DNA from: Bacteroides eggerthii
GTDB lineage: Bacteria; Bacteroidota; Bacteroidia; Bacteroidales; Bacteroidaceae
Assembly: GCF_025146565.1 (NCBI RefSeq)
Contig: NZ_CP102258.1
Coordinates: 1,644,001 to 1,708,000, forward strand
Direction: 5' to 3'
DNA length: 64,000 nucleotides
Position 1 is the first letter of the stretch; the number at the start of each line of letters is the position of its first letter. Shown here piece by piece: positions 8,268-49,504 of the stretch. Under the pieces are notes generated by a model. That model ran no database searches. It saw only the letters and a program-made list of their open reading frames with translations, and was not told the DNA's origin. A program made the position numbers and the translations under genes.

Positions 8268-9290
8268 TTATCTGAACGGTGTATTCTCCCTCAACATCTG
8301 ATTCCTGTACACTATTCCCCGTTCTTTCTTATCATACAGTTCCATCCTTGAGACACCAAAGCTTTCACGGTTGGCATTATAGTTGTTGACTGCCATACTT
8401 TCAATGTCATTCTCAGAGATACCATGCCTGCCGAATGTACCGATGAGATATTCCAGTGCAGTATCATACAAGACACCATACAGACACAACCATTTTGCTC
8501 TAGAAAGGATGGATTTGTGTCTGTTACCATCTTCATAGCTGTCCGGATACTCTTTTCTCCATTTCCTGTCCACGTAGTTAATCAGTGTCTTGTCCTTCCA
8601 TAACCTCTGAAAACCTGTATTCCTTTCAATCTCTTCCGGCGTATGGATAAAACAACCGCCGGAACCACCATGATTATAACTCTTCGCAGCAGGTTCAGGA
8701 ATGGAAGGGTCATATTCAAAGTGGTAGGGAACCAACGTGTCTTTCCCGGGGTTGACATAGACATCAGGATCATAACTCAGGAAGAACGTGCGGCTTAGAT
8801 TATGACAACTCTTATCGAATTCATCAGTCTTTGGATATAACCTTTGCTTCACCTGCCAAAAAAGATTGTAATGATGGTCCGGGTTGGTGTTGTCATGGAT
8901 CATAGCCGCCTTCACACCTCTATTACCCGGGGAGAACCATACTGCGTAAAGATGGAGAGGATTGGTATATTGAATGAGTCTTTCCTTGAATTCTCCTGCC
9001 GCCTCATGTGACCCGAAATCATCAAAGTCAAGCACAAGAAGATTGGAATACTGGCGCAGGTTGGTCGAGTCATCGTTTCTGTAGTCGAATATTCCGGAAG
9101 GGGCTATCATGGGGAGTTTGTGTTTCTCTTCTTTGTAGGCTTTCTCTGTTGTCTGTTTTCTAACCATGTCTGTCTGCTTGGAAAGTTTGGGATTGGATGC
9201 TATAAGTTCAAGGATATGGTCGAAGTTATAATAGATCCTGCTTTTTGAATCGCTTGAATTAAAGTAGTAGCTTATGTTTTTGTTTATCAT
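8268..9290 (-). CDS. BT4734/VirE N-terminal type replication protein
   Basis: A 340-aa protein of the BT4734/BF3469 group. It carries the VirE N-terminal type domain at about residues 55-190: the motif LPMIAPSGIFDYR, then LLVLDFDDF with acidic residues, VKAAMIHDN, and CHNLSRTFFLSYDPDVYVN. The C-terminal half (about 230-340) is helical. In mobile DNA these proteins often resemble the archaeo-eukaryotic primase module and sit with replicative helicases, as here with the ATPases at 9736 and 24787. The FDD motif could be a metal-binding pair, but catalysis is inferred only. It has its own terminator at 8217-8245 and a strong leader hairpin at 9351-9383. Confidence 0.75.
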   Translation of the reverse strand: MINKNISYYFNSSDSKSRIYYNFDHILELIASNPKLSKQTDMVRKQTTEKAYKEEKHKLPMIAPSGIFDYRNDDSTNLRQYSNLLVLDFDDFGSHEAAGEFKERLIQYTNPLHLYAVWFSPGNRGVKAAMIHDNTNPDHHYNLFWQVKQRLYPKTDEFDKSCHNLSRTFFLSYDPDVYVNPGKDTLVPYHFEYDPSIPEPAAKSYNHGGSGGCFIHTPEEIERNTGFQRLWKDKTLINYVDRKWRKEYPDSYEDGNRHKSILSRAKWLCLYGVLYDTALEYLIGTFGRHGISENDIESMAVNNYNANRESFGVSRMELYDKKERGIVYRNQMLRENTPFR

Positions 9291-12090: not shown

Positions 12091-14961
12091 ATGAAAAGGA
12101 AAGTAAAAATAGGTATATGGAATACTATTATCTACATGCTTGTGGTTATTAGTTTAGGAGTAGCTCTCCCAGTTAGATCGCAAAACAATTACAAAGTAAA
12201 ACTTACAGGCACTGTTTATGAGTACGGTCACAACAACAGGCGTTTGCCTTTAGAATTTGCTGCTGTGTCCATTCCTGAAATTGCATTGGGAACAACCTCT
12301 AATGAAAATGGTAGATACACGCTGGAAAATGTACCTACTGGTAAAATTCGTATGCAAATTCAATATTTGGGCAAAGTTTCTATTGACACCTTAATAAATG
12401 TAAGTAAGGACCTGGTTCTTAATTTTACAATGAGGAATGAGGATTTTAAGTTGAAAGAAGTAACAGTAACCGCAACCAACAGCCGTTCGGGCAAATCCAC
12501 ATCTTCTCACATTTCCCGCTCTGCTATGGATCATATGCAAGCGACCAGTTTATATGATGTAATGTCATTGATGCCAGGTGGAATTTCACAGAATCAGGAT
12601 ATGAGTTCGGCACAACAGATTAACATCCGTCAAGTTTCCAGTTCCAGTGGTCCGGAAGCTCCGATGAATGCTATGGGTACTGCAATAATTCGTGATGGTG
12701 CCCCCATCTCAAATAATGCTAATTTATCTGCGATGAACCCTACGGTATTAAGTGGTACGGAAACACCCGCTTCATTGGCCGGAGGTGCCTCGCCGGCTGG
12801 TGGAACCGATGTTCGCAGTATTTCTACAGAAAATATAGAGTCTATACAAATTGTTCGTGGTATCCCTTCTGTTGAATATGGTGATCTGACCTCAGGAGCA
12901 GTAATTATTAATACAAAAGCTGGTCGTGAGCCGCTACGTATCAAAGCAAAAGCCAATCCTAATATCTATCAGGTGTCTATGGGAACCGGTTTTGAACTTG
13001 GAAAAAAGAAAGGTGCTTTAAATGTAAGTGCAGATTATGCTTATAATACGAACAATCCCATATCCAGTTACCAGCACTATCAGCGTGCCACAACAAAGTT
13101 GCTCTATTCAAATACTTTCTTTAATAATAAGTTACGTACCAATTCCAGCTTTGATTTTGTTTATGGTAAGGATCAGCGTGAACGTAATCCTGATGACGAA
13201 CAAACTAAAACAGCTTCGGAAGGTCGTGATGTAGGTTTTACTTTGAATACCAATGGTACATGGAATATAAATAAGGGCTGGTTAAAAACACTACGCTATG
13301 TATTGTCGGGTACGTATATGGATAAAGACAGTTATTATGAAACCGTATACAGTTCTGCCACATCTCCTTATTCCATGACCACTACAAACGGTGCGGTGCT
13401 TAGTAACTTTGCAGGTCAGCACATCTATGATGTCAATGGTAATCAAATTACTAATTTTGGACCGGAAGACATAAATCATTATGCTGTTTATCTGCCAAGC
13501 AGCTATTTGGGACACTATGAGATTGATAGTCGTGAAGTTAATTTGTTTGCTAAGGTAACGAGTTCTCTATTCAAGGCGAGCGGTCATGTAAACAACCGCA
13601 TCTTGATTGGTGCGGATTTCCGGAGTGACGGTAACGTTGGTAAGGGAAAAACTTATGATCCAAGTACTCCTCCTTATCGTAGTCAATATGGTCATAATTC
13701 ATCTTTCCGTCCACGTAACTATAAGGATATTCCTTTCATTAACCAATTTGGTGCATATGTGGAAGATAATTTTAAATGGTCTATAAGTGGTACGCATGAT
13801 TTGAACATTCAGGCTGGTGTGCGTTATGATCATACCTCAGTAGTAGGGGGTATTTTCTCGCCACGTGTAAATGCATCCATTGATTTGATTCCGAATTTAT
13901 TAAGTCTTCAGGGAGGTTACGGTATTGCTGCAAAGATGCCTTCTCTTCTCTATTTATATCCGGAAAATGCATATTTTGAATATATCAATATAAATGAGCT
14001 TGCCAATGAAAATATTCCGGAAAGCCAGCGTTTGTTCATGACCACCACAGAAGTTCGGCAAGTAGATAACTCAGATTTAAAGATTGCCCAAAATCATAAG
14101 GCGGAAGTCGGATTTAATTTACGAGTGGGTAAAACCAATCTGAATGTAATAGCTTATAAGGAGCGTCTGAAGGATGGTTATGTAATGAGCCAAACTTTCA
14201 ATACCTTCAATACATTTATCTATAATGAATACCAGCGCACAGAAAACGGAATAGAACTTAGTAGTAGCTTACCGGTATTGTCTACTTATGCAAAACCAAC
14301 TAATAATTTAAATATAGAAACCAAAGGTTTAGAATTTGATTTGAACATCGGACGTATTGATGCTATCCGTACGGCTTTCCAAATAAATGGTTCATGGATG
14401 CGTACTAAAAGTTGGCGTCAGGGTTATAGCTTCTATGACAATAGCGAAGATGCTGCTTCAGCCCGTAAACCGGTGGCCATTTATTCTCAAGATGGCAATG
14501 CAAGTTATAAACAGCAATTTGTAACGACTTTACGTGCCACTCACAATATCCCGCGTATCGGTTTTGTTGTTACGATGACAGCACAAGCTATTTGGCAGCA
14601 GTCTAATTGGAATACGTTTGGAAACGATTCTATACCTGTGGGCTATTTAGCATTGGAAGATGCGTCTGTAAATATGTTTCCCGAAGGGCAATATACCACT
14701 ACCCAGCAAGTAAAAGATGCAGGATATGGATATATGTTGAATAATGTAAGTCATAATAATGCTATAAAAGAATCATATAGTCCTTATTTTTGTTTTAACT
14801 TGAATGTAACTAAAGAAATTAGCGATATGCTACGTGTTTCTTTCTTTGCCAACAATATGTTCAGAAGTTATCCGCGCAGAGAATCCAAACGTAATCCGGG
14901 TTCGTATACTCAATTGAATAACCGATTTTTCTTTGGGCTGGAATTATCACTCACTTTATAA
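12091..14961 (+). CDS. TonB-dependent outer-membrane receptor
   Basis: About 956 aa from ATG 12091 (MKRKVKIGIWNTIIYMLVV, signal peptide ending PVRSQ). Next comes a carboxypeptidase-regulatory-like beta domain at about residues 35-115 (FAAVSIPEIALGTTSNENGR), then a plug domain (SLYDVMSLMPGGISQ; VEYGDLTSGAVIINTKAG at about 270). The rest is a 22-strand type barrel ending in the aromatic FFFGLELSLTL. It imports a ligand through the outer membrane using TonB energy. It is not a typical SusC (no SusD partner follows). The next genes encode a DUF4876-like lipoprotein, a DUF6850-like barrel and three proteases in one direction, with only 13 bases to the next start, so it heads an operon. I chose ATG 12091 because earlier in-frame codons lack a signal peptide. 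Confidence 0.85.
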   Translation: MKRKVKIGIWNTIIYMLVVISLGVALPVRSQNNYKVKLTGTVYEYGHNNRRLPLEFAAVSIPEIALGTTSNENGRYTLENVPTGKIRMQIQYLGKVSIDTLINVSKDLVLNFTMRNEDFKLKEVTVTATNSRSGKSTSSHISRSAMDHMQATSLYDVMSLMPGGISQNQDMSSAQQINIRQVSSSSGPEAPMNAMGTAIIRDGAPISNNANLSAMNPTVLSGTETPASLAGGASPAGGTDVRSISTENIESIQIVRGIPSVEYGDLTSGAVIINTKAGREPLRIKAKANPNIYQVSMGTGFELGKKKGALNVSADYAYNTNNPISSYQHYQRATTKLLYSNTFFNNKLRTNSSFDFVYGKDQRERNPDDEQTKTASEGRDVGFTLNTNGTWNINKGWLKTLRYVLSGTYMDKDSYYETVYSSATSPYSMTTTNGAVLSNFAGQHIYDVNGNQITNFGPEDINHYAVYLPSSYLGHYEIDSREVNLFAKVTSSLFKASGHVNNRILIGADFRSDGNVGKGKTYDPSTPPYRSQYGHNSSFRPRNYKDIPFINQFGAYVEDNFKWSISGTHDLNIQAGVRYDHTSVVGGIFSPRVNASIDLIPNLLSLQGGYGIAAKMPSLLYLYPENAYFEYININELANENIPESQRLFMTTTEVRQVDNSDLKIAQNHKAEVGFNLRVGKTNLNVIAYKERLKDGYVMSQTFNTFNTFIYNEYQRTENGIELSSSLPVLSTYAKPTNNLNIETKGLEFDLNIGRIDAIRTAFQINGSWMRTKSWRQGYSFYDNSEDAASARKPVAIYSQDGNASYKQQFVTTLRATHNIPRIGFVVTMTAQAIWQQSNWNTFGNDSIPVGYLALEDASVNMFPEGQYTTTQQVKDAGYGYMLNNVSHNNAIKESYSPYFCFNLNVTKEISDMLRVSFFANNMFRSYPRRESKRNPGSYTQLNNRFFFGLELSLTL

Positions 14962-14974
14962 TGTTTAGGAAGTT

Positions 14975-16249
14975 ATGAAAAAATATTTAATATATTTGTT
15001 TGCATTGGCAAGTACCCTTTTGATAGGATGCGATTCCTTCAGGGACATGTCTGGCGCAGCAGAAGTGAATCCTATCACAGTTGATGTATATTTGGATATT
15101 ACCGTTGAAAATATATCCACGCTGAAAGATCTGACTGTAAAGTTTGACAATTACGATGAAGATTTACATTATGTAAAAGAAGTAACTGATAATAGTGTGA
15201 AAGTAGACGGGATTATCCCCGGAATTTATTCAGTAACAGTATCCGGTACAGCTATTGATACAGAAAATAGCGAGTATTATATCAATGGTAACTCTGTAAA
15301 TGCAGCATTATTTAAACATGGCAGCGCATTGAATATTGAAGTGCAAGGCCTTAAAGTGAGCCCTTTAATTTTCAAGGAGATTTATTATTGCGGTAGCCGT
15401 CCGGAAAAGGGGGGAGTCTATTTCCGCGACCAGTTCTATGAGATATACAATAACTCTGCTGACGTTTTGTATTTGGACGGTATTTATTTCGCAAATCTAA
15501 CTCCAGGTACAGCTACTACTAAACTACCAATTTGGCCGGAAGCGGATGGTAATAATTATGCATATGGAGAACGTGTGTGGAAATTTCCAGGAAATGGAAC
15601 CGAATATCCGTTAGCACCAGGTGAATCTTGCATTATTTCTCAATTTGCCGCTAATCATCAGTTGGACATCTATAACCCTCAAAGTCCTATCGACGGCAGT
15701 AGTTCTGAGTTTGAGTTTAATATGAATAATCCAAATTTCCCTGACCAGGCAGCTTATGATATGCAACATGTTTTCTATCAAGGAAAAGCAGAGATGGGAA
15801 GCATACCACAGTATTTGACATCCGTATTTGGAGGCGCTTATGCGATTTTTCGTGTTCCTGAAGGAGAAACTTGGGATCCGGTCAATGATGAAAATATGAA
15901 GACAACAGATCTAAGCAAACCGAACAGTAATGTTTATTATGCTAAAATACCTGTTAAATATGTATTGGATGCTGTTGAAGCAGTAGACAATGAGTCAAAG
16001 ATGAATGCAAAACGTGTTCCCGGTGTACTTGATGCAGGTATTACTTGGGTAGGAGCTACTTACTGCGGTTTAGGTATTGCTCGTAAATTGTCCACAGGCG
16101 AAGAAGGTAATCCTATTATTCGCGAAGAAACAGGCACATACATATATCAGGATACAAACAACAGTACGGATGACTTTGAACGTGGCGTTGTTCCTGTAAT
16201 GCGTCGTAATGGAGCAAAAATGCCTTCATGGAATCACACATTGCAATAA
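14975..16249 (+). CDS. DUF4876-like surface lipoprotein
   Basis: A 424-aa lipoprotein: signal MKKYLIYLFALASTLLIGC with Cys19 lipidated. Residues 30-120 form an Ig-like beta domain (LKDLTVKFDNYDEDLHYVKE). About 125-210 resembles a lamin-tail-like fold (FYEIYNNSADVLYLDGIYFAN). A large C-terminal part follows, with APGESCIISQFAANHQ and VFGGAYAIFRVPEG. This matches the DUF4876 group, which I know as a companion of a TonB receptor. It probably stands in for SusD as the ligand-binding or gating surface protein of the receptor just upstream. Binding target unknown. Confidence 0.7.
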   Translation: MKKYLIYLFALASTLLIGCDSFRDMSGAAEVNPITVDVYLDITVENISTLKDLTVKFDNYDEDLHYVKEVTDNSVKVDGIIPGIYSVTVSGTAIDTENSEYYINGNSVNAALFKHGSALNIEVQGLKVSPLIFKEIYYCGSRPEKGGVYFRDQFYEIYNNSADVLYLDGIYFANLTPGTATTKLPIWPEADGNNYAYGERVWKFPGNGTEYPLAPGESCIISQFAANHQLDIYNPQSPIDGSSSEFEFNMNNPNFPDQAAYDMQHVFYQGKAEMGSIPQYLTSVFGGAYAIFRVPEGETWDPVNDENMKTTDLSKPNSNVYYAKIPVKYVLDAVEAVDNESKMNAKRVPGVLDAGITWVGATYCGLGIARKLSTGEEGNPIIREETGTYIYQDTNNSTDDFERGVVPVMRRNGAKMPSWNHTLQ

Positions 16250-16269
16250 TTAATTAAAAGGACAGAACA

Positions 16270-17832
16270 ATGAAAAAACAATATATGAACTATATGAAAA
16301 GCTGCCTGCTGGTAGTGATAGCCTGCTTTGTAAGTATGGTGGGAGCGGCACAGGGTTTCTCTCCTGCCGCTATGGAACAATTGAAAACAAAACGACTATG
16401 GTCTCATTCACAGAATGCTGCCGGTATGCCATTCGATGATATTCAGAATTATTCGAATGTTATATTGGGATATGACTTACAGGACGGAAACTATTGCCGT
16501 CCGCAAGAGGGGCAGAAAGAGACTATCGTAGGTGTATCCAGTGAAGGCTTTATCAATCTGAAAAATGCATATGTATGGGGAGCATTTAATTTTGCACAAA
16601 AAAATCTGACGGATGCCGGATATAATGCCTCCATTGCCGATCCATTCAGGGGAATGCCTTACTATATCGCAGACCAGCACTTAAGTAAATGGAGAAATCA
16701 ATATTACGATCTGAAGTTTCGTGCAGCTACTCCTTTATTTGGTAATCATTGGGCATTGGGTTTGGAAGGTAATTATGTAGCTACATTAGCTGCCAAACAG
16801 CGTGACCCGCGTGTGGATACCCGTTTTTATACGCTGGAACTGACACCGGGGATTACTTACAGGTTGAATAATTCACACAAGTTTGGTGCAAGTTTCAAGT
16901 ATAGTTCTATCAAGGAAGACTCAAGAATGAGTAATGTCAACTCTTATGTGGATCAAGATTATTATATATTATACGGTTTGGGAACAGCCATAAAAGGAAT
17001 AGGCAGCGGTGTAACCAGCAATTATATTGGAGACCGTTTCGGTGGAGCTCTCCAGTACAACTTCAGTATGCCGTCTTTCAATTTACTGCTTGAGGGCAGT
17101 TACGATGTAAAAGCGGAAACTGTTCAGCAGAGCTATACGACTCCTAAAAAAATAGCCGGTGTAAAAGATAAAACCGCCCATGTTTCTTTAACGATGATTC
17201 AGGAAGGAAAGAACTATACCAATTATATGAGAACCACATATACAAACCGCAATATCGATGGTATTCAGTATATTTCTCAACGCGATAACTCTGAATCACA
17301 AAGTGGCTGGGTGGAATTATATAATAACATCCGTTCTACGTACAAGACACAAACCGCTTCTCTTAATTATGCATTAAGCAGAAACCGCGGGAATGAATAT
17401 AGTTGGAAAGCAGAATTAAATGTGAATTATACCAAGCAAGACGATGAATATTTAATGCCTAATTCTGTACAGAATGCAGAAAATTTATCTTTAGGCTTAG
17501 GCGGTAAAAAGAATTTTGTGTTAGGAAATAGCTTGAATCGCAGGCTTTTAATAGATGTTCATGTTGCGTATAACAATAATCTGGGAGGTGAATATGTATA
17601 TGGTGGTAGCCATGCAGACTATCCGACAGTAACCGAATTACAACAAGGGCTGACTAATTATTATACTTGTGATTACTATCGTATTGGCGGGTCGGTTACG
17701 TATTCGCAACAAGTCAGAGAAAACAGACGTATGAACTTATTTGCAAAAGTTGTATTCGATCGTATAAATACCTCTGACTATGATTATGATGGGCGTACTT
17801 ACTTGTCGATAAGTTTAGGATGTAATTTTTAA
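16270..17832 (+). CDS. DUF6850-like outer-membrane barrel protein
   Basis: A 520-aa exported protein: signal peptide ending MVGAAQ (about residue 28), an N-terminal soluble part (residues 30-100, WSHSQNAAGMPFDDIQNYSN), then repeated amphipathic beta strands with aromatic belts (FRAATPLFGNHWALGLEGNY; HKFGASFKYSS) and a final strand YLSISLGCNF typical of an outer-membrane barrel. It fits the DUF6850 group. It lies 20 bases after the lipoprotein gene and is followed by the proteases, so it probably forms an outer-membrane complex with the receptor and lipoprotein. Whether it is a pore or scaffold is unknown. Confidence 0.65.
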   Translation: MKKQYMNYMKSCLLVVIACFVSMVGAAQGFSPAAMEQLKTKRLWSHSQNAAGMPFDDIQNYSNVILGYDLQDGNYCRPQEGQKETIVGVSSEGFINLKNAYVWGAFNFAQKNLTDAGYNASIADPFRGMPYYIADQHLSKWRNQYYDLKFRAATPLFGNHWALGLEGNYVATLAAKQRDPRVDTRFYTLELTPGITYRLNNSHKFGASFKYSSIKEDSRMSNVNSYVDQDYYILYGLGTAIKGIGSGVTSNYIGDRFGGALQYNFSMPSFNLLLEGSYDVKAETVQQSYTTPKKIAGVKDKTAHVSLTMIQEGKNYTNYMRTTYTNRNIDGIQYISQRDNSESQSGWVELYNNIRSTYKTQTASLNYALSRNRGNEYSWKAELNVNYTKQDDEYLMPNSVQNAENLSLGLGGKKNFVLGNSLNRRLLIDVHVAYNNNLGGEYVYGGSHADYPTVTELQQGLTNYYTCDYYRIGGSVTYSQQVRENRRMNLFAKVVFDRINTSDYDYDGRTYLSISLGCNF

Positions 17833-17863
17833 TGCTACATAACGAAATCTATATTACAAAAAC

Positions 17864-20038
17864 ATGCGTAAATTAATAACTGGAAGTTTGATGCTCTGCA
17901 GCATATTATCTCTGCGGGCACAGACATTTGTTAAACCGGCTGTGAAAGTAAAGGATACCTCTTTTGCTGTAATTACAGATAAAGGGACATTTCAGGCTTG
18001 CGAAGCCGAGCTTAAAGCCTATCAGGAGATTCTAGGAAAGGAAGGGTTGCCTACGTTCATCGTATACAATGAATGGAAGAAACCGGAAGATGTAAAGAAA
18101 GTTATTGTTAAGCTCTACAAAAAGGATAAATTGGAAGGAGTGGTATTTGTCGGTGATATTCCTATTCCAATGCTCCGCAAAGCCCAGCATATGACTTCCG
18201 CTTTTAAAATGGATGAGAAAAACAATGACTGGAGAGACTCTTCAGTGCCCAGCGACCGTTTCTACGATGATTTCGACCTACAATTCGATTTTTTGAAACA
18301 GGACAGTGTCGAAAATAATTTCTTCTATTATAATTTGGCTATAAAATCTCCACAGCAAATTCGGTGTGACATATATTCTGCACGTGTCAAAGCTGTTGAT
18401 AACGGCGAAGAACCGCATGCGCAAATCAGCCGCTATTTAAAAAAAGTGGTGGCTGAGCACCAGACAAACAATAAATTAGACCAATTCTTCTCCTATACAG
18501 GTGATGGCTCTTACTCTAACTCATTGACTGCATGGACACCGGAAACCTTTACTATCCGCGAACAGATGCCGGGCGTATTCGATAAAGAAGGACGGGCCCG
18601 TTTCATCCGTTATAATTTCAGCGATTATCCCAAGGACGATGTCATTAATATGCTGAAACGCACAGATCTGGACTTGTCTATTTTTCATGAGCATGGTATG
18701 CCCGAACGTCAATATCTTTCCGGTAGTCCCGCTACTAATAGGTGGAATGCTCATGTAGATGCAATGAAGTACTATTATCGTGGTTTAGCACGTAGAAAGC
18801 AAGACAACAAAAAGTCTTTCGACGAAATGCTGGATATGATGAAAAACACATATGGTTTGGACACTACTTGGATTGCAGGCTATGATGATCCCAAAGTAAT
18901 TGCAGAAGATTCTTTACTAGACCTGCGCACCGGTATTATCCTATCGGAAGTTACAGAGTTTAAGCCTAATAGCCGTATGGTAATTTTCGATGCATGCTAT
19001 AATGGTGATTTTCGGGAAAAAGATTACATTGCCGGACGTTATATCATGTCGGAGGGAAAATGCGTAACTACTTTTGCCAATTCAGTCAATGTACTGCAAG
19101 ATAAAATGGCAAACGAGATGCTCGGCCTGTTAGGCATGGGAGCACGAGTGGGGCAATGGGCTAAATTGACGAATATTCTCGAATCGCACATTACCGGTGA
19201 CCCTACTCTACGTTTTCAATCTATCAATGAGGTAGATGCCAATGCTTTGTTCAAAGAACCATATAGTGAGTCCCGCATGTTGGAGTTATTACAGTCGCCC
19301 TATGCCGACATACAGAATTTTGCTTTGCACAACCTTTATCGCAATGACTATCCGGGTATTTCTGATTTATTAAGAAAAACTTTTGAAACTTCCCCGTTCA
19401 TGATGGTACGTTTCACCTGCTTGGCATTGCTTGAGAAGATTGGTGACAAAAACTTCCGGGAAGTCTTACACTTGGCCATTACGGATTCCTATGAATTTAT
19501 TCGTCGTACCTCTGTTCGTATGATGCAACATGTGGGACTGAACGAGTATGTTTATCCGCAAATCAAAGCCTATGTAGAAGACAACCTATCCGAGCGTGTG
19601 GCATTTAATGTGAGTTTGGGGCTTCAGGTCTTTGATCAGGCAGCCGTACAGGCGGCAATTGATAAAGTAATGGCTGAGACCTATGTGTTGCAAGACAAGG
19701 AGGATATGCGTAAGGTTTTGGAGGATGCCAATAATAGTCGTAGCATGCAAAAAGAGTTATTAAGCAAAGAAACCTCCGAACGTTGGCGCATCCTTTATTG
19801 CAATTCTCTGAAAAATTATATGGCACATGCCTGTGTAGACGGCCTCTTGGCTTTACTTACCGACTCCAGTGAAAGTGAAAAGCTAAAAACTTGTTTATTG
19901 GAGGCTTTTGCTTGGTTCACTCATTCTTATCGGAAGCCTGACATCCTTCGGGTATGCGATCAACTGAGAAAAGATAAGAGCTTATCCGAGAACCTTCGTG
20001 AAGAAGCCGACCGTACATATTACAGACTTAAAAATTAA
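17864..20038 (+). CDS. Exported gingipain-like (C25/clan CD) protease with HEAT repeats, 1
   Basis: 724 aa, signal peptide MRKLITGSLMLCSILSLRAQ (cut near 20). Residues 30-450 match the gingipain-type fold: VVFVGDIPIPMLRKAQHM at about 93-110, SSVPSDRFYDD at about 126-136, the catalytic His in FHEHG (His277), the nucleophile in FDACYNG (Cys378), and GDPTLRF at about 445-451. The C-terminal 270 residues are helical HEAT-like repeats (YADIQNFALHNLYRND; REVLHLAITDSYEFIRRTSV). No type IX secretion C-terminal domain is apparent, so periplasmic or cell-anchored action is likely. It is the first of three tandem paralogues, 31 bases behind the barrel gene. Substrate unknown; it could process imported peptides or cleave partner proteins. 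Confidence 0.75.
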   Translation: MRKLITGSLMLCSILSLRAQTFVKPAVKVKDTSFAVITDKGTFQACEAELKAYQEILGKEGLPTFIVYNEWKKPEDVKKVIVKLYKKDKLEGVVFVGDIPIPMLRKAQHMTSAFKMDEKNNDWRDSSVPSDRFYDDFDLQFDFLKQDSVENNFFYYNLAIKSPQQIRCDIYSARVKAVDNGEEPHAQISRYLKKVVAEHQTNNKLDQFFSYTGDGSYSNSLTAWTPETFTIREQMPGVFDKEGRARFIRYNFSDYPKDDVINMLKRTDLDLSIFHEHGMPERQYLSGSPATNRWNAHVDAMKYYYRGLARRKQDNKKSFDEMLDMMKNTYGLDTTWIAGYDDPKVIAEDSLLDLRTGIILSEVTEFKPNSRMVIFDACYNGDFREKDYIAGRYIMSEGKCVTTFANSVNVLQDKMANEMLGLLGMGARVGQWAKLTNILESHITGDPTLRFQSINEVDANALFKEPYSESRMLELLQSPYADIQNFALHNLYRNDYPGISDLLRKTFETSPFMMVRFTCLALLEKIGDKNFREVLHLAITDSYEFIRRTSVRMMQHVGLNEYVYPQIKAYVEDNLSERVAFNVSLGLQVFDQAAVQAAIDKVMAETYVLQDKEDMRKVLEDANNSRSMQKELLSKETSERWRILYCNSLKNYMAHACVDGLLALLTDSSESEKLKTCLLEAFAWFTHSYRKPDILRVCDQLRKDKSLSENLREEADRTYYRLKN

Positions 20039-20044
20039 TTGGCC

Positions 20045-22246
20045 ATGATTAAAAAAATAATATATCTGGCATTTCTTTTGCCACTGGCAGGAAATGCACA
20101 AACAACAGTCATAAAGCCATTGGTCAAGCAACCTACCGCTTTTGCTATTATAACAGATAACCAGACTTATGCAAATACCAAAGATGCCATGCATCAGTAC
20201 AAAACTGCGGTTGAAGATGATGGTTTGGCAACTTATCTGATCAGCGGTGATTGGCAAAATCCAGATCAAGTCAAACAGATGATCATCAAAACATATCAAG
20301 AATGCCCTTCATTGGAAGGTCTGGTTTTAATCGGTGATGTGCCTGTCGCATTGGTACGTAATGCACAACACATGACTACTGCATTCAAAATGAATGAGAA
20401 AGCCTTTCCTTGGGATCAGTCTTCCGTACCTACCGACCGCTTTTATGATGATCTGAACTTAAAGTTTGAGTTCATCAGGCAAGACTCAGTAAATCATCAG
20501 CATTTCTACTACAAATTGACGGAAGACAGTCCCCAGCGGCTAAATCCTACTTTCTATTCGGCTCGTATCAAGTATCCGGAAAAAAAGGAAGGGGATAAAT
20601 ATGCGGCCATTGCCTCATATTTGAAGAAAGCTGCTGCTGCCAAGGCAGATAAGCATAATCAATTGGATCGGGTATTCTCATTCAATGGTGGTTCTTACAA
20701 TTCCGATTGCCTGATTGTATGGATGGATGACGAAAAAGCTTATATGGAGAACTTTCCATTAGCTTTTGGTCGTCAAATGGGATTCAAACATTGGAACTTC
20801 CGAATGAAACACCCTATGAAATATAAGTTATTCAGCGAATTGCAACGAAAGGACCTTGACTTATTTATGTTTCATGAGCATGGAATGCCAACAGGGCAGC
20901 TTATTAATGATGAATTGGCATGCACAGATTTCAATAATCGTTATAAAATGTTGAAGAGTACACTTTATAATGCAGTCATGGCCCATGTTGGAAAACGTGA
21001 TAAAGACACCTTACGTATTCAGATGCAGGAAAAGCGACAAGTGAATGAGGTGTTTTTTAAAGACCTGGATAATCCTAAGTTCTGGGAAGCAGACTCTCTT
21101 CACTACGCTGATGAACGTATCGTAACGGAAGATTTAATGAAGAGAAATCTTTCCACCAATCCGAAGATGATAATGTTTGATGCGTGCTACAACGGTTCTT
21201 TTCACGAAAACGACTATATAGCAGGACAATATATTTTTAATGACGGTCAGACATTGGTGGCACAAGGAAATACCCGTAACGTATTGCAAGACCGCTGGAC
21301 TATTGAAATGATTGGTTTGTTGTCCCATGGTGTACGAGCCGGGCAATACAATAAGCTGATCGCATCACTTGAGGGTCATTTGTTTGGTGATCCCACTTTC
21401 CGTTTTGCTCCTGTCGAAGCCAATACTTTAAGTACCGATATAACGCTACACAAAAATGACAAAGCTTATTGGAAGAATTTGTTAAACAGCCCATACGCTG
21501 ATGTACAAAGTTTGGCCATGCGTATGTTGGCTGATACCGATACCCAAAAGGAATTGTCTCCGTTGCTCCTGAAAAAGTACCGGGAAAGCGGTTTCAATAC
21601 GGTTCGTATGGAGGCTATCAAGTTGTTGAGCCGTTATCAGGACGATAACTTCATCGAAGCATTACGCGAAGGTTTGAACGATGCTTATGAAATGGTAGCT
21701 CGCCAAAGTGCCATTTATGCTGGATTTGTAGGTGACGATTCCTTATTGCCCGCTATTGTGGAAGCATTGGTCGAACATAATGAACGTTTACGCGTACAAA
21801 TGAGTGCCAACAAAGCTTTAAGCCTTTATCCGAAAGAGAAAGTAGAAAAAGTAATAGAAGACTTTTATGCAAAAGTTGACCGTTTGAATGAAAACGAGGA
21901 GAAAAAGCGGTTACTAAGAAGTCTGGAGAGAATGTGTGTACAAGAGGCAAAAGTCCATCAGACTTTGATGGATGTAGCTGCACCGGAAGCAAAACGTATC
22001 AGTGCAATCCGCAATGTGCGTAACTATACGTTCCATTTCCACGTGGATGATTATTTGAATGTAATTCGTGATGCAGGTAATCCACAGGAAGTACGTGTAG
22101 TAATGGCCGAAGCATTAGGATGGTTTACCAATTCTGTACAACGTCCACACATTCTTGAAGAAATAAAGAAGATGCAACAAACAGCCAATCTTCCGGAAGA
22201 TTTAAAAGCAGAACTTGAACAGACAATCAAAAGATTAAGTTTATAA
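20045..22246 (+). CDS. Exported gingipain-like protease with HEAT repeats, 2
   Basis: 733 aa from ATG 20045, six bases after the previous stop. Signal peptide MIKKIIYLAFLLPLAGNAQ. The Cys-protease domain shows LVLIGDVPVALVRNAQHM at about 93-110, SSVPTDRFYDD, FHEHG with His279, FDACYNG with Cys381 and LFGDPTFRF, so the dyad is complete. The C-terminal part has HEAT-like repeats (YADVQSLAMRMLADT; FNTVRMEAIKLLSRY; DAYEMVARQSAIYAG). It is clearly a duplicate of its two neighbours but diverged, suggesting different specificity. Same likely periplasmic location and operon. Confidence 0.75.
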   Translation: MIKKIIYLAFLLPLAGNAQTTVIKPLVKQPTAFAIITDNQTYANTKDAMHQYKTAVEDDGLATYLISGDWQNPDQVKQMIIKTYQECPSLEGLVLIGDVPVALVRNAQHMTTAFKMNEKAFPWDQSSVPTDRFYDDLNLKFEFIRQDSVNHQHFYYKLTEDSPQRLNPTFYSARIKYPEKKEGDKYAAIASYLKKAAAAKADKHNQLDRVFSFNGGSYNSDCLIVWMDDEKAYMENFPLAFGRQMGFKHWNFRMKHPMKYKLFSELQRKDLDLFMFHEHGMPTGQLINDELACTDFNNRYKMLKSTLYNAVMAHVGKRDKDTLRIQMQEKRQVNEVFFKDLDNPKFWEADSLHYADERIVTEDLMKRNLSTNPKMIMFDACYNGSFHENDYIAGQYIFNDGQTLVAQGNTRNVLQDRWTIEMIGLLSHGVRAGQYNKLIASLEGHLFGDPTFRFAPVEANTLSTDITLHKNDKAYWKNLLNSPYADVQSLAMRMLADTDTQKELSPLLLKKYRESGFNTVRMEAIKLLSRYQDDNFIEALREGLNDAYEMVARQSAIYAGFVGDDSLLPAIVEALVEHNERLRVQMSANKALSLYPKEKVEKVIEDFYAKVDRLNENEEKKRLLRSLERMCVQEAKVHQTLMDVAAPEAKRISAIRNVRNYTFHFHVDDYLNVIRDAGNPQEVRVVMAEALGWFTNSVQRPHILEEIKKMQQTANLPEDLKAELEQTIKRLSL

Positions 22247-22248
22247 AT

Positions 22249-24441
22249 ATGAAGAAATACATCCTTTTGGCAATTACCGCTTTGTGCTTACAGGATATGC
22301 AGGCGCAAACAGTTGTACATCCTAGTATAAAAACAAAGACTACTTTTGCAATTGTAGTCGATCAGAAAAGTTATGATGAAGCGAAAAGTGAAATTGATGC
22401 TTATCGTACCAGTATAGAAAAAGAAGGCTTAGGTACTTACTTGCTAATTGATGATTGGAAAAGGCCCGAACCTATTCGTGAGCAGCTTGTCAAATTGCAT
22501 GAGAATGAGAAAATGCCTTTGGAGGGTTGCGTATTTATAGGTGACATCCCTATTCCAATGATTCGTGATGCACATCATCTATCTTCGGCTTTCAAAAGGT
22601 CTCCCAAAGCCAATTGGCAGAAATCAAGTGTTCCTTCCGACCGTTATTATGATGACTTCGGATTAAAATTTGATTATATTAAACAAGACAGTTTGATACC
22701 TGACTATCATTATATGACATTGCGTGCTGATTCTAAACAGTATATTTCACCGGATATTTATTCGGCCCGTATCCGTCCATTGCATTTAGAAGGGGAGAAC
22801 CGGTATCAGATGCTACGCGATTACTTAAAAAAGGCAGTTGCCGAAAAAGCAAAGCAAAATGCATTTGACCAACTGACTATGGCCCGCGGCCATGGTTACA
22901 ATTCCGAAGATCCTTTGGCATGGAGCGGTGAGCAAATGGCCTTACGTGAGCAATTGCCGCAAATATTCAAATCGGGTAATACAGTGAAGTTCTATGATTT
23001 TGACATGCGCTATCCGATGAAACCATTATACTTGAACGAGATTCAGCGCGAAGGATTAGATGTCATGCTATTCCATCACCATGGTGGCCCCACCATGCAG
23101 TATATCAATGGCTATGAAAATGGTTCCGGTATTAATTTGAGTATTGAGAATGCCAAAATATTCTTGCGAAGCAAAGTGCCTTCATACGCCAAGAAACATG
23201 GGCGTGAAGCTGCTATCAGAGAATATGCCAAGCAGTATGGGGTACCTGAAAGTTGGTGTGCGGAAGCTTTCGATGAGGAGAAAATAAAATCGGATTCCAT
23301 TGTAAATCGTAATATGGATATCTATACTGAAGATATTCGTCTTTTGACTCCTAATGCGCGTTTTATATTGTTTGATGCTTGTTTCAACGCTTCTTTCCAT
23401 TTGGATGACAACATTGTAGGTTCTTACATATTTAATAAGGGTAAGACCATTGCTACTATGGGATGTACGGTTAACACCATTCAAGATAAATGGCCGGATG
23501 AATTTCTCGGCTTGTTAGCTGCCGGTATGCGCATCGGGCAGTTCACCCGTTTTACCTGCTTCTTGGAAAATCATCTGATCGGTGACCCGACTTTTCATTT
23601 CACCAATAATGCCGGGCTGGATATGGACATCAACCAAGCTTTAGTTGTGCAGGAAGGAAATGTTACATTCTGGAAAAAACAGCTGAATTCCCCTATGGCT
23701 GACATGCAGGCAATGGCGCTCCGCCAATTGTCAATGGCAAATTATAGTGGGCTCGTCGAGCTACTGAAGAAAAGTTACTACGAATCGAACTATTTCGTAG
23801 TGCGGTTAGAAGCATTACGCCTATTAGCTTTGAACTATCCGACAGAAGTTGCCGATGTATTGCAGACAGCCATGAATGACAGTTATGAGCTGATCCGTCG
23901 CTATGCGGTGGAATATGTTGAAAAGAACTGCAATCCGGAATTGTTGCCGGCATGGATAGAAAGCTATCTGTTGCGCGGACATGAAAACCGCCATCGTTTC
24001 AGAATTTTTAGTGCTATCAATACATTCGACCATGATATGGCTTTGAATGAATTGAAAAAACAGGCTGCCGATTGGTCTTTCTACGATTCTTCCTATGTGA
24101 ATGAATTGTTGGAATACTTTCCTCGCCAAAAGAAAGGACTTGAAAGGGATTTTGCACTTATTGGCAATCCGGAAAGCACTACCAAACAGATACAAAGCGA
24201 AATAAGTAGGTTCCGAAATAAACCTATCACTAAAGCCATTGATCCATTACTGAATATTATCAAAAATGAAAGCCAAGAAGAAGAGCTTCGTATAGCGGCT
24301 GCCGAAACATTAGGTTGGTATAATTTATATCATGATAAGACAAGCATTATTAAGGAACTTGAAACATTCCAAACTTCTAAGAAAAAGGTAATGAACGAAA
24401 TCGTCAAGACAATTAATAGGTTGAAAGGTAAAAATAGGTAA
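22249..24441 (+). CDS. Exported gingipain-like protease with HEAT repeats, 3
   Basis: 730 aa, two bases after the previous stop. Signal peptide MKKYILLAITALCLQDMQAQ. The protease domain carries CVFIGDIPIPMIRDAHHL, SSVPSDRYYDD, FHHHGG with His278, FDACFNASF with Cys378 and LIGDPTFHF. Here the usual HEHG is HHHG and CYNG is CFNA, so the active site surroundings differ from paralogues 1 and 2 although His and Cys are kept. HEAT-like repeats fill residues 470-730 (MADMQAMALRQLSMANYSG; NYFVVRLEALRLLALNYP). It is the last gene of the operon; a strong terminator follows at 24515-24550. Confidence 0.75.
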   Translation: MKKYILLAITALCLQDMQAQTVVHPSIKTKTTFAIVVDQKSYDEAKSEIDAYRTSIEKEGLGTYLLIDDWKRPEPIREQLVKLHENEKMPLEGCVFIGDIPIPMIRDAHHLSSAFKRSPKANWQKSSVPSDRYYDDFGLKFDYIKQDSLIPDYHYMTLRADSKQYISPDIYSARIRPLHLEGENRYQMLRDYLKKAVAEKAKQNAFDQLTMARGHGYNSEDPLAWSGEQMALREQLPQIFKSGNTVKFYDFDMRYPMKPLYLNEIQREGLDVMLFHHHGGPTMQYINGYENGSGINLSIENAKIFLRSKVPSYAKKHGREAAIREYAKQYGVPESWCAEAFDEEKIKSDSIVNRNMDIYTEDIRLLTPNARFILFDACFNASFHLDDNIVGSYIFNKGKTIATMGCTVNTIQDKWPDEFLGLLAAGMRIGQFTRFTCFLENHLIGDPTFHFTNNAGLDMDINQALVVQEGNVTFWKKQLNSPMADMQAMALRQLSMANYSGLVELLKKSYYESNYFVVRLEALRLLALNYPTEVADVLQTAMNDSYELIRRYAVEYVEKNCNPELLPAWIESYLLRGHENRHRFRIFSAINTFDHDMALNELKKQAADWSFYDSSYVNELLEYFPRQKKGLERDFALIGNPESTTKQIQSEISRFRNKPITKAIDPLLNIIKNESQEEELRIAAAETLGWYNLYHDKTSIIKELETFQTSKKKVMNEIVKTINRLKGKNR

Positions 24442-24786: not shown

Positions 24787-25824
24787 TTACACAAGTAAAT
24801 AAAGAGGCTGTATGAAACGGAGCATTGTAGGATCGAGCGTCTTGTCAATCACATAAGGTATCACATGGTTCCCGTCCCATACTATCCTGCCGTTCCTGCT
24901 CTTGAGCTGTTTCACATATCTGCCCGTCGAGGGATTGTTGCTGTCCGTTCCTATGGCGAAGACCGACTGTACGAAGTTGGTGAGCATGCTTGAGCCCAAA
25001 CAGTGGTTGATGTCGAGAGTGGTGAACGGCTGAATCTTCGGGGTATGGTTGACCACGAGAATCGAATAGCCTTCCTTCGCCCAGCTACAGAACTCCTGGC
25101 AGATAGGCTTCACATCCTCCGCCTTCATTCCCCCGTTATTGACAAGAAAGGTGAGGTTGTCAAGGATCAGTACCTTTGCGTTCACCCTGACCATCATCCT
25201 CCTTATCAACGGCAGGAACTTGTCCGAATCATAGAGGCCGTCTCCGATCATGCTTAGATCCGGGCGGTGGAGATTTTCGGGCCATACATGCAGTTCACCG
25301 TCCTTTGAGGTATATCTCTCCTGGAACTGCTTCATGGAGAGTTCAAGGTCGAGGTATAATACGGTTTTCCCCAGTCGCCCGCTTATATGCTCCGCTATCT
25401 GGACCGCATAGAGGCTCTTGCCCGTATTTGTCCGCCCGAAAAGGATGGCGAACTCATTCTCGAACCATAGCGCGTTACCATTCCCGTCACCTCCCCATAA
25501 TATCTCCGGTACTGGTTTCCGTTGCTCTTCCATCATCATATTGTTTAAGGATTGTCCCATTATAAAGTCAAGTTCGTCCGCTCCGTCTGCCTGTAGTGTA
25601 TCTCTGGGTGTGGATGCAGGTGTTGCAGGTGTCGTGTATTCATCCTTCTTTTCCGTATGCCATTCTTTCCCGTTGCCGAAGAGGTTGAATTCCGGCACTT
25701 CTATGGGTGGCACAACAAGAGGTATGTACGGCAATGGATTTTCCGCATCATTCCAGCATTTCTCAAGACTGGCGTTAAGGGAAGCGATAGTTTTTTCATC
25801 AGGTTCTAATTTTTCAGTCATCAT
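24787..25824 (-). CDS. RepA-like RecA-fold ATPase (replicative helicase type)
   Basis: 345 aa. An N-terminal linker of about 105 residues precedes a RecA-fold ATPase: Walker A GRTNTGKS at 130-137, YLDLELS at 157-163, Walker B VLILDN at 218-223, then VVNHTPK (a sensor-like motif). This is the AAA_25/RepA group that acts as hexameric helicase in plasmid replication. The C-terminus, TMLRFIQPLYLLV, is short for the group and ends just where the receptor/protease cassette meets it, so it may be cut by that insertion. Upstream are a hairpin (25915-25949) and the structured repeat copy B. With the ATPase at 9736 and the VirE-N type protein it gives a replication set. Confidence 0.75.
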   Translation of the reverse strand: MMTEKLEPDEKTIASLNASLEKCWNDAENPLPYIPLVVPPIEVPEFNLFGNGKEWHTEKKDEYTTPATPASTPRDTLQADGADELDFIMGQSLNNMMMEEQRKPVPEILWGGDGNGNALWFENEFAILFGRTNTGKSLYAVQIAEHISGRLGKTVLYLDLELSMKQFQERYTSKDGELHVWPENLHRPDLSMIGDGLYDSDKFLPLIRRMMVRVNAKVLILDNLTFLVNNGGMKAEDVKPICQEFCSWAKEGYSILVVNHTPKIQPFTTLDINHCLGSSMLTNFVQSVFAIGTDSNNPSTGRYVKQLKSRNGRIVWDGNHVIPYVIDKTLDPTMLRFIQPLYLLV

Positions 25825-29786: not shown

Positions 29787-29869
29787 TTTCATCTATTTAA
29801 ACTTGTAGCTTATCACATATAATATGATTGGTATTTTACATCAAAGCTGTAGAAGTTAAAAGTAAAATC

Positions 29870-30820
29870 ATGAAAATCAAACTGTTTTGTATCGTATTGT
29901 GCCTTTGCGTGTTTATGACCTGTGAGAAAAATGAACCGGTTATTTCGGATGAACCTGTTATTCCACCAACAGATCAACCCAAAGAACCACAAGAGTCAAT
30001 ATCGACAGATGGGATAATTAATTGGAACAATGAATTTATAATTGTAGGAGACAATAATATGGCAAATATAGGAAGTAATGATTGGAATGCAGTCACTTAT
30101 GGAAACGGGAGATATGTAACAGTGGGAGACAGTAACAGTGCAGCCTGCTCTATTGATGGAATCAATTGGACAGCAACCTCAGGATTTAATGACTTATCGG
30201 GAATTTGTTATGGAAATGGAAATTTTATTGCAGTGGGAACGGGAGGAAATGTTCGTTATTCAGATGACGGGGCCGGCTGGTCAACAGTTACTATACCGGG
30301 AAAGAGAAATTTGAGGGCCGTCTGTTATGAAAATGGAAAGTTCGTTGCAGTGGGAGAAAATGGAGTGATTGCTTATTCCACTGACGGAAGCAACTGGACT
30401 GCCAAGAATGTGGGAAGCAATGATTGGAATAGCGTTTGCTACGGAAATGGAAAGTTCGTTGCAGTTGAGAACGATGGAGGCGTTGCTTATTCCACTGACG
30501 GGATCAACTGGACTGCCAAGAATGTGGGAAGTAATTGGTGGTATGGTGTTTGCTACGGAAATGAAAAGTTTGTTGTAGTGGGAACTGATGGGGATGTTGC
30601 TTATTCTACTGATGGAATCAGTTGGACTACAACAACTATATCAGACGCCCCCACTATAATGGCTGTTTGCTGCGGAAATGGGAAGTTCGTTGCGGTAGGA
30701 AGAATATGGAATGCCTCAGGATACTACATACGGGCTATTTATTATTCTACTGATGGGATCAACTGGACTTCCAAGACTATGGGTAGAGGTGAATTGTACG
30801 GAATATGCCCTGTTCAATAA
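29870..30820 (+). CDS. Beta-propeller lipoprotein with near-identical repeats
   Basis: 316 aa from ATG 29870 (MKIKLFCIVLCLCVFMTC, Cys18 lipidated; start chosen for this signal). After a Pro-rich linker come six or more repeats of about 40 residues, each with a core like VCYGNGKFVAVG followed by AYSTDGINWT. This is the pattern of sialidase-like/Ycf48-like beta-propellers (Asp-box-like SxDGxxW). The repeats at about 30400-30560 are nearly identical at DNA level, a sign of recent duplication. A strong terminator follows. Probably a cell-surface binding protein; ligand unknown. Confidence 0.75.
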   Translation: MKIKLFCIVLCLCVFMTCEKNEPVISDEPVIPPTDQPKEPQESISTDGIINWNNEFIIVGDNNMANIGSNDWNAVTYGNGRYVTVGDSNSAACSIDGINWTATSGFNDLSGICYGNGNFIAVGTGGNVRYSDDGAGWSTVTIPGKRNLRAVCYENGKFVAVGENGVIAYSTDGSNWTAKNVGSNDWNSVCYGNGKFVAVENDGGVAYSTDGINWTAKNVGSNWWYGVCYGNEKFVVVGTDGDVAYSTDGISWTTTTISDAPTIMAVCCGNGKFVAVGRIWNASGYYIRAIYYSTDGINWTSKTMGRGELYGICPVQ

Positions 30821-46993: not shown

Positions 46994-48360
46994 AGTGTCC
47001 ATAATATTGTGTAAATGAGAAAACAGGATTCAGGTATATCTTCCTATATCTGTATTCTGTTTTCAAATATAAGTATAAATTGGTTCATAATCAATCCCCA
47101 GTTATGAATTGGTTGCGTCCATTTCTTCTCAATCTCCATCAACGAGAGGTAAACCGTCTTTTTTGCGGCATCATCCGAGGGAAATGATAGTTTGGACTTA
47201 GTGTACTTCCTGATTTTTCCGTTCAGATTTTCAATAAGATTGGTTGTATAGATTATACTCCTGATTTCCAGAGGGAACTGGAAGAATACGGTCAGGTCGT
47301 CCCAATTCTTCCTCCATGAAAGTATGGCATACGGGTATTTTCCTCCCCATTTCCTTTCCAAATTATCAAGTTCCACGACGGCAGCCTCCTTGTTGTGAGC
47401 ATTATAGATATTCTTCATATCGGCTGTAAACTCTTTCTTATCCTTATAAACAACATATTTACAAGAGTTTCTGATTTGATGTACCACGCATATTTGTGTG
47501 GAGGATTGAGAGAATACACTTCGTATGGTATCGGTAAACCCATTCAGGTTATCCGTACAGGTGATGAGGATATCTTGTACGCCACGCACTTTCAGGTCGG
47601 TCAGGACACCCATCCGGAAAGCGGAGCTATCAGTCTTGCCGCCCCACATACTCAAGACTTCTTTCAATCCGTTTTGTTTGAGCCCGACACACAGGTACAC
47701 CGTCTTGTTGATAATCTTGCCGTTATTGCGTATCTTGAAGACGATACCGTCCATCCATACAATCAGATATACGGGATCAAGAGGACGGTTCTGCCACTCC
47801 AATGCCGCCTGGCTTACCTTGTTGGTTATAATGGATATGGCAGAAGTAGAGAGTTCTATTTCATAGATTTCCCCCATCTCTTCTTCGATATCAGAGACAC
47901 TTATGCCTTTGGCATATAGAGAGATGACGAGCTTCTCAATAGACAAACCGAGGCTCTCGTGTTTGGGAACAACTATCGGTTCAAACTCTCCGTTACGGTT
48001 ACGGGGGGACGGAGATGACGGATTCACTATGCTCGGTCTGGATTTTCTTAGGGTACTTGCCGTTACGAGAATTCCCACTGTTGTTTCCACTTATGGAGTT
48101 TTTCTCATAGCCCAGATGGGCATCCAACTCACCTTCAAGCATCTTTTCCAATACCTACGCATGCAACTGCTTCAGGAACCGGATCACATCGGCTTCCGTT
48201 TTAAATTGGCTCTGAAATTCCTTGCTCAAAACTTCATCGGGCACTGCTTGATTCTTTACAGTCATTTTCTTTGGCATTTTACAAAGTTATAAATAAAAAA
48301 TACGGAACTCTTTTGGGAATCCCGTATTTCGCATTTACACAAAATATTTTATAGTGCCCA
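46994..48360. mobile_element. Decayed IS256-family insertion sequence
   Basis: The ends are imperfect inverted repeats: ATAATATTGTGTAAATG near 46999-47015 on the left and, reading inward on the right (48326-48352), ATAAAATATTTTGTGTAAATG. The single gene inside is a broken IS256-type transposase. I could not identify a target-site duplication with confidence, so the exact outer limits are approximate to a few bases. Confidence 0.8.
47044..48277 (-). pseudogene. IS256-family transposase, broken
   Basis: The minus-strand frame from ATG 48277 (MPKKMTVKNQAVPDEVLSKE) continues to RFLKQLHA, where a TAG at 48155-48157 replaces an expected Tyr codon, then VLEKMLEGELDAHLGYEKNS. A run of six C (48003-48008 on the plus strand as G6) has one base too many and shifts the frame before RNRNGEFEPIVVPKHE. 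The long remaining frame (47044-48090) holds the DDE-type core: LIVWMDGIVFKIRNN, LITCTDNLNGFTDTI and NLIENLNGKIRKYTKSK. It is non-functional as written; one lesion is a homopolymer indel and could be a sequencing error, the stop less so. Confidence 0.9.
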
Positions 48361-49430: not shown

Positions 49431-49504
49431 AATTAACACTTATTTAACGCTCTTCTCGGTTACTAAACGTCCGTTCAATAACCTTTAAGCTGATTTATAA
49501 AAAC

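What the first reader, a model, noticed from the sequence alone, without database searches (positions are those of the whole stretch)
12091..24441. Receptor operon with three tandem gingipain-like protease/HEAT proteins
Seen: six same-strand genes with gaps of 2-31 bases encode a TonB-dependent receptor, a lipoprotein, a barrel protein and three exported paralogues. Each paralogue has a FHxHG His and a FDAC Cys plus GDPT, and HEAT-like repeats at its C-terminus. Known: gingipains and caspase-like clan CD proteases use a Cys/His dyad. Inference: the three proteases have diverged (HHHG and CFNA in the third) and may form a cascade or process a ligand captured by the receptor. I know no described system of this exact make-up. 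Possible roles: peptide or protein uptake, or processing of an imported toxin or effector.
Basis: partly seen in the sequence, partly recalled or inferred. Interest (0 to 1): 0.78.

Follow-up and report, generated by a model that had tools for sequence, protein, structure and literature searches.

The report
Import operon with three probable proteases
A conserved operon of Bacteroides-type bacteria couples an outer-membrane import receptor to three probable protein-cutting enzymes, and comparison with relatives suggests that it captures a protein or peptide and cuts it open, perhaps to obtain iron.

Summary
The operon is real: six same-strand genes, 12091-24441: TonB-dependent receptor, DUF4876 lipoprotein, DUF6850 protein, three exported paralogues. 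The paralogues' family has an invariant HG/Cys dyad (205 of 205), HEAT repeats and a weak Peptidase C25 link (7 of 58 members, at least one above Pfam's cut-off). No fold could be predicted.

It is a conserved Bacteroidota cassette: 69 of 80 named loci keep the order, and the paralogues are old lineages. The receptor-DUF4876-DUF6850 core also occurs without these proteases. Behind it then stand an M16 protease, a Met-zincin plus S46 peptidase, a di-haem cytochrome c peroxidase (8 of 20 phylum loci), a PepSY/DUF4857 set, or none of these. M16 proteases, other proteases and cytochrome c peroxidases are also what Grinter et al. 2019 report beside the ferredoxin importer FusA. A B. thetaiotaomicron locus with matching gene names, and other DUF4876 operons, are induced by iron limitation (PMC10434189).

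Best reading: an import-and-process system, probably iron piracy, with clan CD-like proteases. Ligand and proteolysis are untested.

The parts
12091..14961 (+). TonB-dependent receptor (CarboxypepD_reg-like domain, plug, barrel)
   Evidence: no chain of the PDB matches by sequence at E<=0.01
14975..16249 (+). DUF4876 lipoprotein
   Evidence: Pfam PF16215 189.5 bits; near-identical to PDB 4q1z chain A over residues 25-423
16270..17832 (+). DUF6850 protein, presumed outer-membrane barrel (recalled annotation)
   Evidence: Pfam PF21012 390.7 bits
17864..20038 (+). Protease-like paralogue A (position 1); dyad His277/Cys378; HEAT repeats from about residue 470
   Evidence: clade of 78 that holds 73 of 73 'first after DUF6850' proteins
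20039..22246 (+). Protease-like paralogue B (position 2); dyad His281/Cys383; HEAT repeats. Likely true start ATG 20045
22249..24441 (+). Protease-like paralogue C (position 3); dyad His278/Cys378; HEAT repeats
   Evidence: clade of 48 with 23 of 26 position-3 proteins and 20 of 23 proteins encoded upstream of the receptor

Best explanation
It is an import-and-process system of the Bacteroidota, most likely for iron. The lipoprotein (DUF4876), the DUF6850 protein and the TonB-dependent receptor bind an iron- or haem-carrying protein or peptide and bring it across the outer membrane. Three periplasmic gingipain-like (clan CD, C25-related) cysteine proteases with C-terminal HEAT scaffolds then cut it, each with its own specificity, so that the metal or cofactor is released. 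In relatives other tools for opening a cargo stand behind the same core: an M16 protease, a Met-zincin with an S46 peptidase, a di-haem cytochrome c peroxidase, or a PepSY/DUF4857 set. Shown by sequence: gene order, invariant dyad, a C25 link of part of the family, exchange behind the core. Reported by others: iron induction of a locus with matching gene names. Inferred: the identity of that locus with this operon, periplasmic location, proteolysis, import of a protein, iron as the gain.
For: In a genus sample DUF6850 occurs in 18 of 41 genomes (17 above cut-off) and the proteases in 4 of 41; in all 4 they lie directly after a DUF6850 gene. Dyad identical in 205 of 205. C25 hit in 7 of 58 members at E<=0.01, best 7.4e-07. 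Exchange: M16 in L119 and, after two more DUF4876-type genes, in L211; Met-zincin plus S46 in L120 and L126 (Met-zincin of L126 by similarity to that of L120); CCP_MauG in 8 of 20 phylum loci, in six families. Grinter et al. 2019 (PMC6793856 section 6) report M16 proteases, other proteases and cytochrome c peroxidases beside FusA, whose Fus system takes iron from imported ferredoxin. Iron: PMC10434189 (passages) lists BT1933-39 (IS256 transposase, hypothetical proteins, HEAT repeat protein, DUF4876 protein, TonB-dependent receptor) up 3.5-7.4-fold, BT3625-33 up 36.7-128-fold and PG1019-22 up 20.8-214.5-fold under iron depletion. L035, L036 and L039 have a remnant similar to the window's Mutator-type transposase directly after the last protease; that Mutator-type and IS256 are one kind is recalled. 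Two single-protease loci have FecR next to the receptor (L116 with a sigma factor, L132 with an STN receptor). Export: hydrophobic N-terminus in 202 of 205, lipobox-like pattern in 2 of 205; no T9SS sorting model among the NCBIfam or Pfam hits of 58 members.
Against: No fold, activity or ligand evidence. The window's own three proteins do not hit C25. Profile-profile comparison with C25 is weak (4-10% probability; reversed controls 0.1-0.4%), and its best local alignments do not pair the dyad; with C14 it is moderate (41-61% for the catalytic region, 77% for the Cys part, 2.7% for the part before it; reversed controls 0.1-2.2%), so the closest clan CD family is open; a local HMM search also favours C14 (best 1.9e-07) over C25 (best 0.031). 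BT1933-39 is matched to this operon by gene names, gene number and neighbour, not by sequence, and its induction is modest. No Fur-like site stands out upstream (mean best match 11.6 of 19 against 11.3 in shuffles, 63 loci). 11 of the 20 phylum loci and 3 of 15 genus loci have none of the named enzymes in the run behind the core. A lipobox pattern was found in only 39 of 71 DUF4876 proteins. For the E. coli Fus-like pair (YddB/PqqL) the substrate is unknown and the paper's outline has a heading that the pair does not support growth during iron limitation in LB.
Confidence: 0.52

Rival explanations
1. Surface or released proteases digest host haemoproteins or iron proteins outside the cell, and the receptor takes up the freed haem or iron, as gingipains feed HmuY/HmuR in P. 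gingivalis (recalled).
For: C25 link. A P. gingivalis DUF4876 gene or protein is listed together with HmuY in three other data sets (PMC10470040, PMC10101095, PMC12119571, passages).
Against: No T9SS sorting model among the hits of 58 members and almost no lipobox. M16 enzymes, which take the same place in relatives, are periplasmic in the Fus-like case PqqL (PMC6793856, abstract and passages).
Confidence: 0.18
2. The system takes up peptides as food (amino acids, not iron); the proteases trim peptides in the periplasm.
For: S46 peptidases, commonly dipeptidyl peptidases (recalled), stand in this place in L120 and L126.
Against: Iron induction of matching and related operons; exchange with di-haem peroxidase and PepSY sets, which are not peptidases.
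Confidence: 0.15
3. The proteases mature or police the receptor complex: they process its proteins, or destroy bacteriocins that enter through the receptor.
For: Tight operon; HEAT scaffolds could hold partner proteins (inference).
Against: 14 of 18 genus genomes with DUF6850 lack the proteases, so they are not generally needed for its maturation; several conserved lineages are more than policing seems to need.
Confidence: 0.1
4. Inactive clan CD-like scaffold proteins; HEAT and the dead domain act as binding proteins.
For: Pfam does not call the window proteins peptidases; no activity data.
Against: HG and Cys invariant in 205 of 205.
Confidence: 0.05

Closest known systems
Ferredoxin uptake system Fus (FusA/FusC) and protease-associated import systems (Grinter et al. 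2019, PMC6793856)
   Same: TonB-dependent receptor with a processing enzyme in one gene cluster; in relatives the same alternatives: M16, other proteases, cytochrome c peroxidase; iron-linked expression (here by inference)
   Different: Bacteroidota, whereas that survey describes Proteobacteria; extra DUF4876 and DUF6850 proteins; three HEAT proteases with a C25 link instead of an M16 enzyme
Gingipains and PorU (Peptidase C25, clan CD)
   Same: GD, [G/A]R[I/V], HG, C and GDP landmarks in the same order; C25 hit in 7 of 58 members
   Different: About 100 residues between His and Cys instead of about 34; HEAT repeats; no T9SS sorting domain found; in an uptake operon
HmuY/HmuR haem uptake of P. 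gingivalis and Bacteroides
   Same: Lipoprotein plus TonB-dependent receptor; induced by low iron in the same study as DUF4876 operons (PMC10434189, passages)
   Different: Homology of the lipoproteins was not tested; no protease in that operon (recalled)
BT3625-33 type PepSY/ABC/DUF4857 operons
   Same: By gene names like the 9 of 15 fetched genus loci in which the receptor-DUF4876-DUF6850 core is followed by PepSY and DUF4857 genes
   Different: Redox/transport set instead of proteases

Membership tests
Peptidase C25 (gingipain family) | Significant match to the family model | tested here: inconclusive
   Window proteins: no hit. 7 of 58 relatives hit at E<=0.01; of the two I identified, L089:2147-4333 is above the cut-off (29.2 bits, cut-off 23) and L075:7812-9989 below it (19.3)
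Peptidase C25 (gingipain family) | His-Gly / Cys dyad in this order, then GDP | tested here: met
   HG and C in 205 of 205; GD in 204 and P after it in 200 (one gap, four Ala)
Peptidase C25 (gingipain family) | Clan CD caspase-like fold | not tested
   Structure prediction was busy at all 31 attempts (first, last)
Peptidase C14 (caspase-like) | Profile relationship | tested here: inconclusive
   hhalign 61% for the catalytic region, 77% for the Cys part; reversed controls 1.4% and 0.1%; local HMM best 1.9e-07; no Pfam C14 hit in 58 members
Protease-associated import system (Fus type) | FusA-family receptor | tested here: inconclusive
   No PDB chain at E<=0.01 for the receptor; that FusA and YddB are in the PDB is recalled, and no direct comparison was made
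Protease-associated import system (Fus type) | M16 protease in the cluster | tested here: not met
   None in this operon; present in the relatives L119 and L211
Protease-associated import system (Fus type) | Import of a protein and proteolytic release of iron | not testable with these tools
   Needs experiments
SusCD-type glycan uptake | SusD-like lipoprotein beside the receptor | tested here: not met
   The lipoprotein hits only DUF4876 in Pfam

The most novel reading that the evidence does not exclude
The Bacteroidota own a phylum-wide, modular protein-piracy platform (receptor-DUF4876-DUF6850) that is independent of Fus and whose cargo-opening module is exchangeable between several protease families and redox enzymes. 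In this version the module is a set of three non-redundant periplasmic gingipain-like proteases that dismantle one imported iron protein step by step, and the set spreads between gut genera by horizontal transfer.
Probability: 0.36. Interest if true: 0.87.

Novelty: new variant of a known kind. Interest (0 to 1): 0.7.

Why it matters
Whole-protein import for iron is documented for few Gram-negative systems (recalled; Fus is the archetype in PMC6793856). If this reading holds, gut Bacteroidota have their own version, with a cargo-opening slot that evolution has filled with several enzyme types. It gives a function to three uncharacterised families (DUF4876, DUF6850, the HEAT proteases) at once and makes a testable prediction in a standard laboratory strain. 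It would also explain why a receptor operon needs three different proteases.

Tried and rejected
The fold is therefore not tested.

PDB sequence searches for the paralogues, with one protein and with a 131-sequence profile, matched almost only alphaRep/HEAT chains in the C-terminal half; two weak hits of the single-protein search at E 0.26 and 1.4 lie outside it or at its edge. Local HMMs of 18 C25 and 19 C14 domains: C25 gave a best E of 0.031 among 205 sequences, C14 1.9e-07. Profile-profile comparison is weak for C25 and moderate for C14; a forced global alignment with C25 gave 17 columns. A Fur-site scan was null. Promoter and terminator scans found no clear excess over shuffles. In the 80 named loci no flanking gene cluster recurs in more than 16 loci; the clusters were not annotated.

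Rejected: 'the third protease is degenerate'; 'the proteases are recent tandem duplicates' (separate old clades). The position-2 proteins are not one clade: 20 of 69 group with window B.

Dropped rows: 11 of 213 protease ORFs were left out of the tree for length (600-800 aa kept), among them long ORFs of 1230-1445 aa. From the places I fetched 20 (18 genomes), better-scoring ones outside the window's genus; lower-scoring ones were not examined there, and some of those genomes (G142, G173, G296, G321, G341) carry the proteases. In the genus, 15 of the 19 DUF6850 loci above cut-off and without proteases were fetched, in 14 stretches. One of the 18 C25 domains (L162) had no dyad at the usual place and was removed. 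Of the 58 members I scanned 20 one by one, so five of the seven C25 hits are not identified.

Papers: PMC6793856, abstract, outline, passages and sections 6 and 11; PMC10434189, PMC10470040, PMC10101095 and PMC12119571, passages only; PMC10913741, one passage, not relevant; all others, search listings only.

Full report
WHAT IS THERE. Six + strand genes stand in the stated place with gaps of 0-31 bases. Pfam gives CarbopepD_reg_2 and Plug for the receptor, DUF4876 for the lipoprotein, DUF6850 for the third protein and, as the only plausible domain, HEAT_2 for the three paralogues. The DUF4876 protein is near-identical to PDB 4q1z, 'Putative lipoprotein'; no paper of the library holds that code. 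The window lies in a 4.2 Mb single-contig genome. Its genus includes a genome with the same hit coordinates as B. xylanisolvens XB1A (G525 against L036), so the host is probably a Bacteroides (inference).

THE PARALOGUES ARE ONE PROTEASE-LIKE FAMILY WITH OLD LINEAGES. Identity to the first is 34% and 33%. The database holds many relatives: 2758 of the 7999 scored candidates at E<=0.001; some of these may match by HEAT repeats alone. In 205 sequences (202 from the 80 named loci plus the three of the window) His277, Gly278, Cys378 and Asn380 never vary, while the preceding His275 is kept in clades A, B and C and varies in 57 more distant members, 13 of which have it. The catalytic pair is therefore probably the second His of FHxHG and the Cys of DAC. 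The tree (midpoint root) puts 73 of 73 first-position proteins with window A, 23 of 26 third-position proteins and 20 of 23 proteins encoded upstream of the receptor with window C, and 20 of 69 second-position proteins with window B; the other second-position proteins form further clades. Three copies are common but not universal: in the genus 20 of 158 genomes have the family, 12 with three copies and 8 with one.

IS IT CLAN CD? Evidence at family level only. Pfam C25 matches 7 of 58 members at E<=0.01. L089:2147-4333, a member of the window-C clade, scores 29.2 bits (cut-off 23) over residues 84-411, which include its His283 and Cys380. Landmarks run in the same order as in the consensus of 18 C25 domains: GD, GR[I/V] (AR in the window), HG, C, GDP. 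The distance His-Cys is 100-102 in the window and about 34 in C25; one relative, L075:7812-9989, has 36. Against: no direct hit for the window's proteins; weak profile-profile scores with C25 whose best alignments do not pair the dyad; a better match to C14. The structure was never predicted because the queue was full.

THE OPERON IS A CONSERVED CASSETTE. In 69 of 80 named loci receptor, DUF4876, DUF6850 and protease follow each other; in some a further protease stands before the receptor. These 80 were found by the protease, so the figure measures order, not frequency. In a genus sample found without the protease, DUF6850 is in 18 of 41 genomes and the proteases in 4 of 41, in all 4 directly behind a DUF6850 gene. 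In a family sample 9 of 81 genomes have the proteases. In a phylum sample 7 of 296 have a match beyond the HEAT part, two of them in the window's genus; 8 further hits touch only the HEAT part.

THE PLACE BEHIND THE CORE IS EXCHANGEABLE. I fetched loci with the core but without these proteases. In the genus, among 15 such loci, 9 carry PepSY and DUF4857 genes, 2 a Met-zincin plus S46 peptidase, 1 an M16 protease and 3 none of these. In 20 loci from the rest of the phylum, 8 have a di-haem cytochrome c peroxidase behind the DUF6850 gene (one of them after a small ORF), in six families; 1 has M16 after two more DUF4876-type genes; 11 have neither in the same-strand run. One search finds all 8 peroxidase places again with the Pfam model and counts 0-5 matches per genome in 18 genomes, about one per 1.5 Mb (my arithmetic), so 8 of 20 is far above chance. 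Grinter et al. describe M16 proteases, other proteases and cytochrome c peroxidases beside FusA receptors, and suggest that the peroxidase may free a cofactor without proteolysis (PMC6793856, section 6 read; discussion read). This parallel is the strongest argument for import of a cargo that must be opened.

IRON. PMC10434189 (passages only) lists BT1933-39 with matching gene names (3.5-7.4-fold up without iron), BT3625-33 (36.7-128-fold) and PG1019-22 (20.8-214.5-fold), and a figure legend compares BT_1938-9 with PG1019-21. Seven gene numbers with an IS256 transposase at one end and a receptor at the other agree with L035, L036 and L039, where a remnant similar to the window's Mutator-type transposase follows the last protease by a few bases. 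This identification is inference. A DUF4876 gene or protein of P. gingivalis is listed beside HmuY in three other data sets (passages). Two loci with single proteases carry FecR next to the receptor. I found no Fur-like site.

HORIZONTAL TRANSFER. Copies 96.8-97.0% identical at DNA level occur in records named Phocaeicola faecicola, B. xylanisolvens XB1A (with a shorter 90.7% piece at the start) and Butyricimonas. In the stretches held, the similarity is limited to 12126-24440 apart from short transposase-like pieces and a 67-base match between paralogues. Neighbours in the window are a BT4734-like gene and an AAA_25 ATPase on the other strand, which I take for mobile-element genes.

LOCATION. 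202 of 205 have a hydrophobic N-terminus, 2 of 205 a lipobox pattern, and no T9SS sorting model appears among the hits of 58 members. I infer the periplasm.

VERDICT. A conserved import-and-process operon without a functional study in the papers I could search; iron piracy is the best-supported purpose, at about even odds. The searches showed expression data only.

Noticed in passing
12126-24440; L035, L036, L039: The operon is 96.8-97.0% identical in three named records (two families by recalled taxonomy), with similarity ending at the operon's edges in the stretches held and a transposase-like remnant a few bases after the last gene there: recent horizontal transfer.
   Followed up: partly
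47044-48090 and 48747-49439 (-): Mutator-type transposase and a resolvase-type recombinase downstream in the window.
   Followed up: no
8268-9290, 24787-25824, 53645-54685 (-): BT4734-like gene, AAA_25 ATPase and DUF3871 gene: perhaps a mobile-element backbone around the operon.
   Followed up: no
L083:2433-6692, L088:7784-12121, L097:1-3693: Long ORFs (1419, 1445 and 1230 aa) that look like two fused protease units, encoded before the receptor.
   Followed up: no
L133:4140-6440: A BNR/YCF48-type protein with a Por secretion tail stands between the DUF6850 and protease genes in a distant genome; similar-looking, unscanned genes in L134 and L135.
   Followed up: partly
L075:7812-9989: A divergent protease member with gingipain-like His-Cys spacing (36 residues), perhaps lacking a later insertion.
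   Followed up: partly
29828-30820: Protein with a DUF6242 match near the operon.
   Followed up: no
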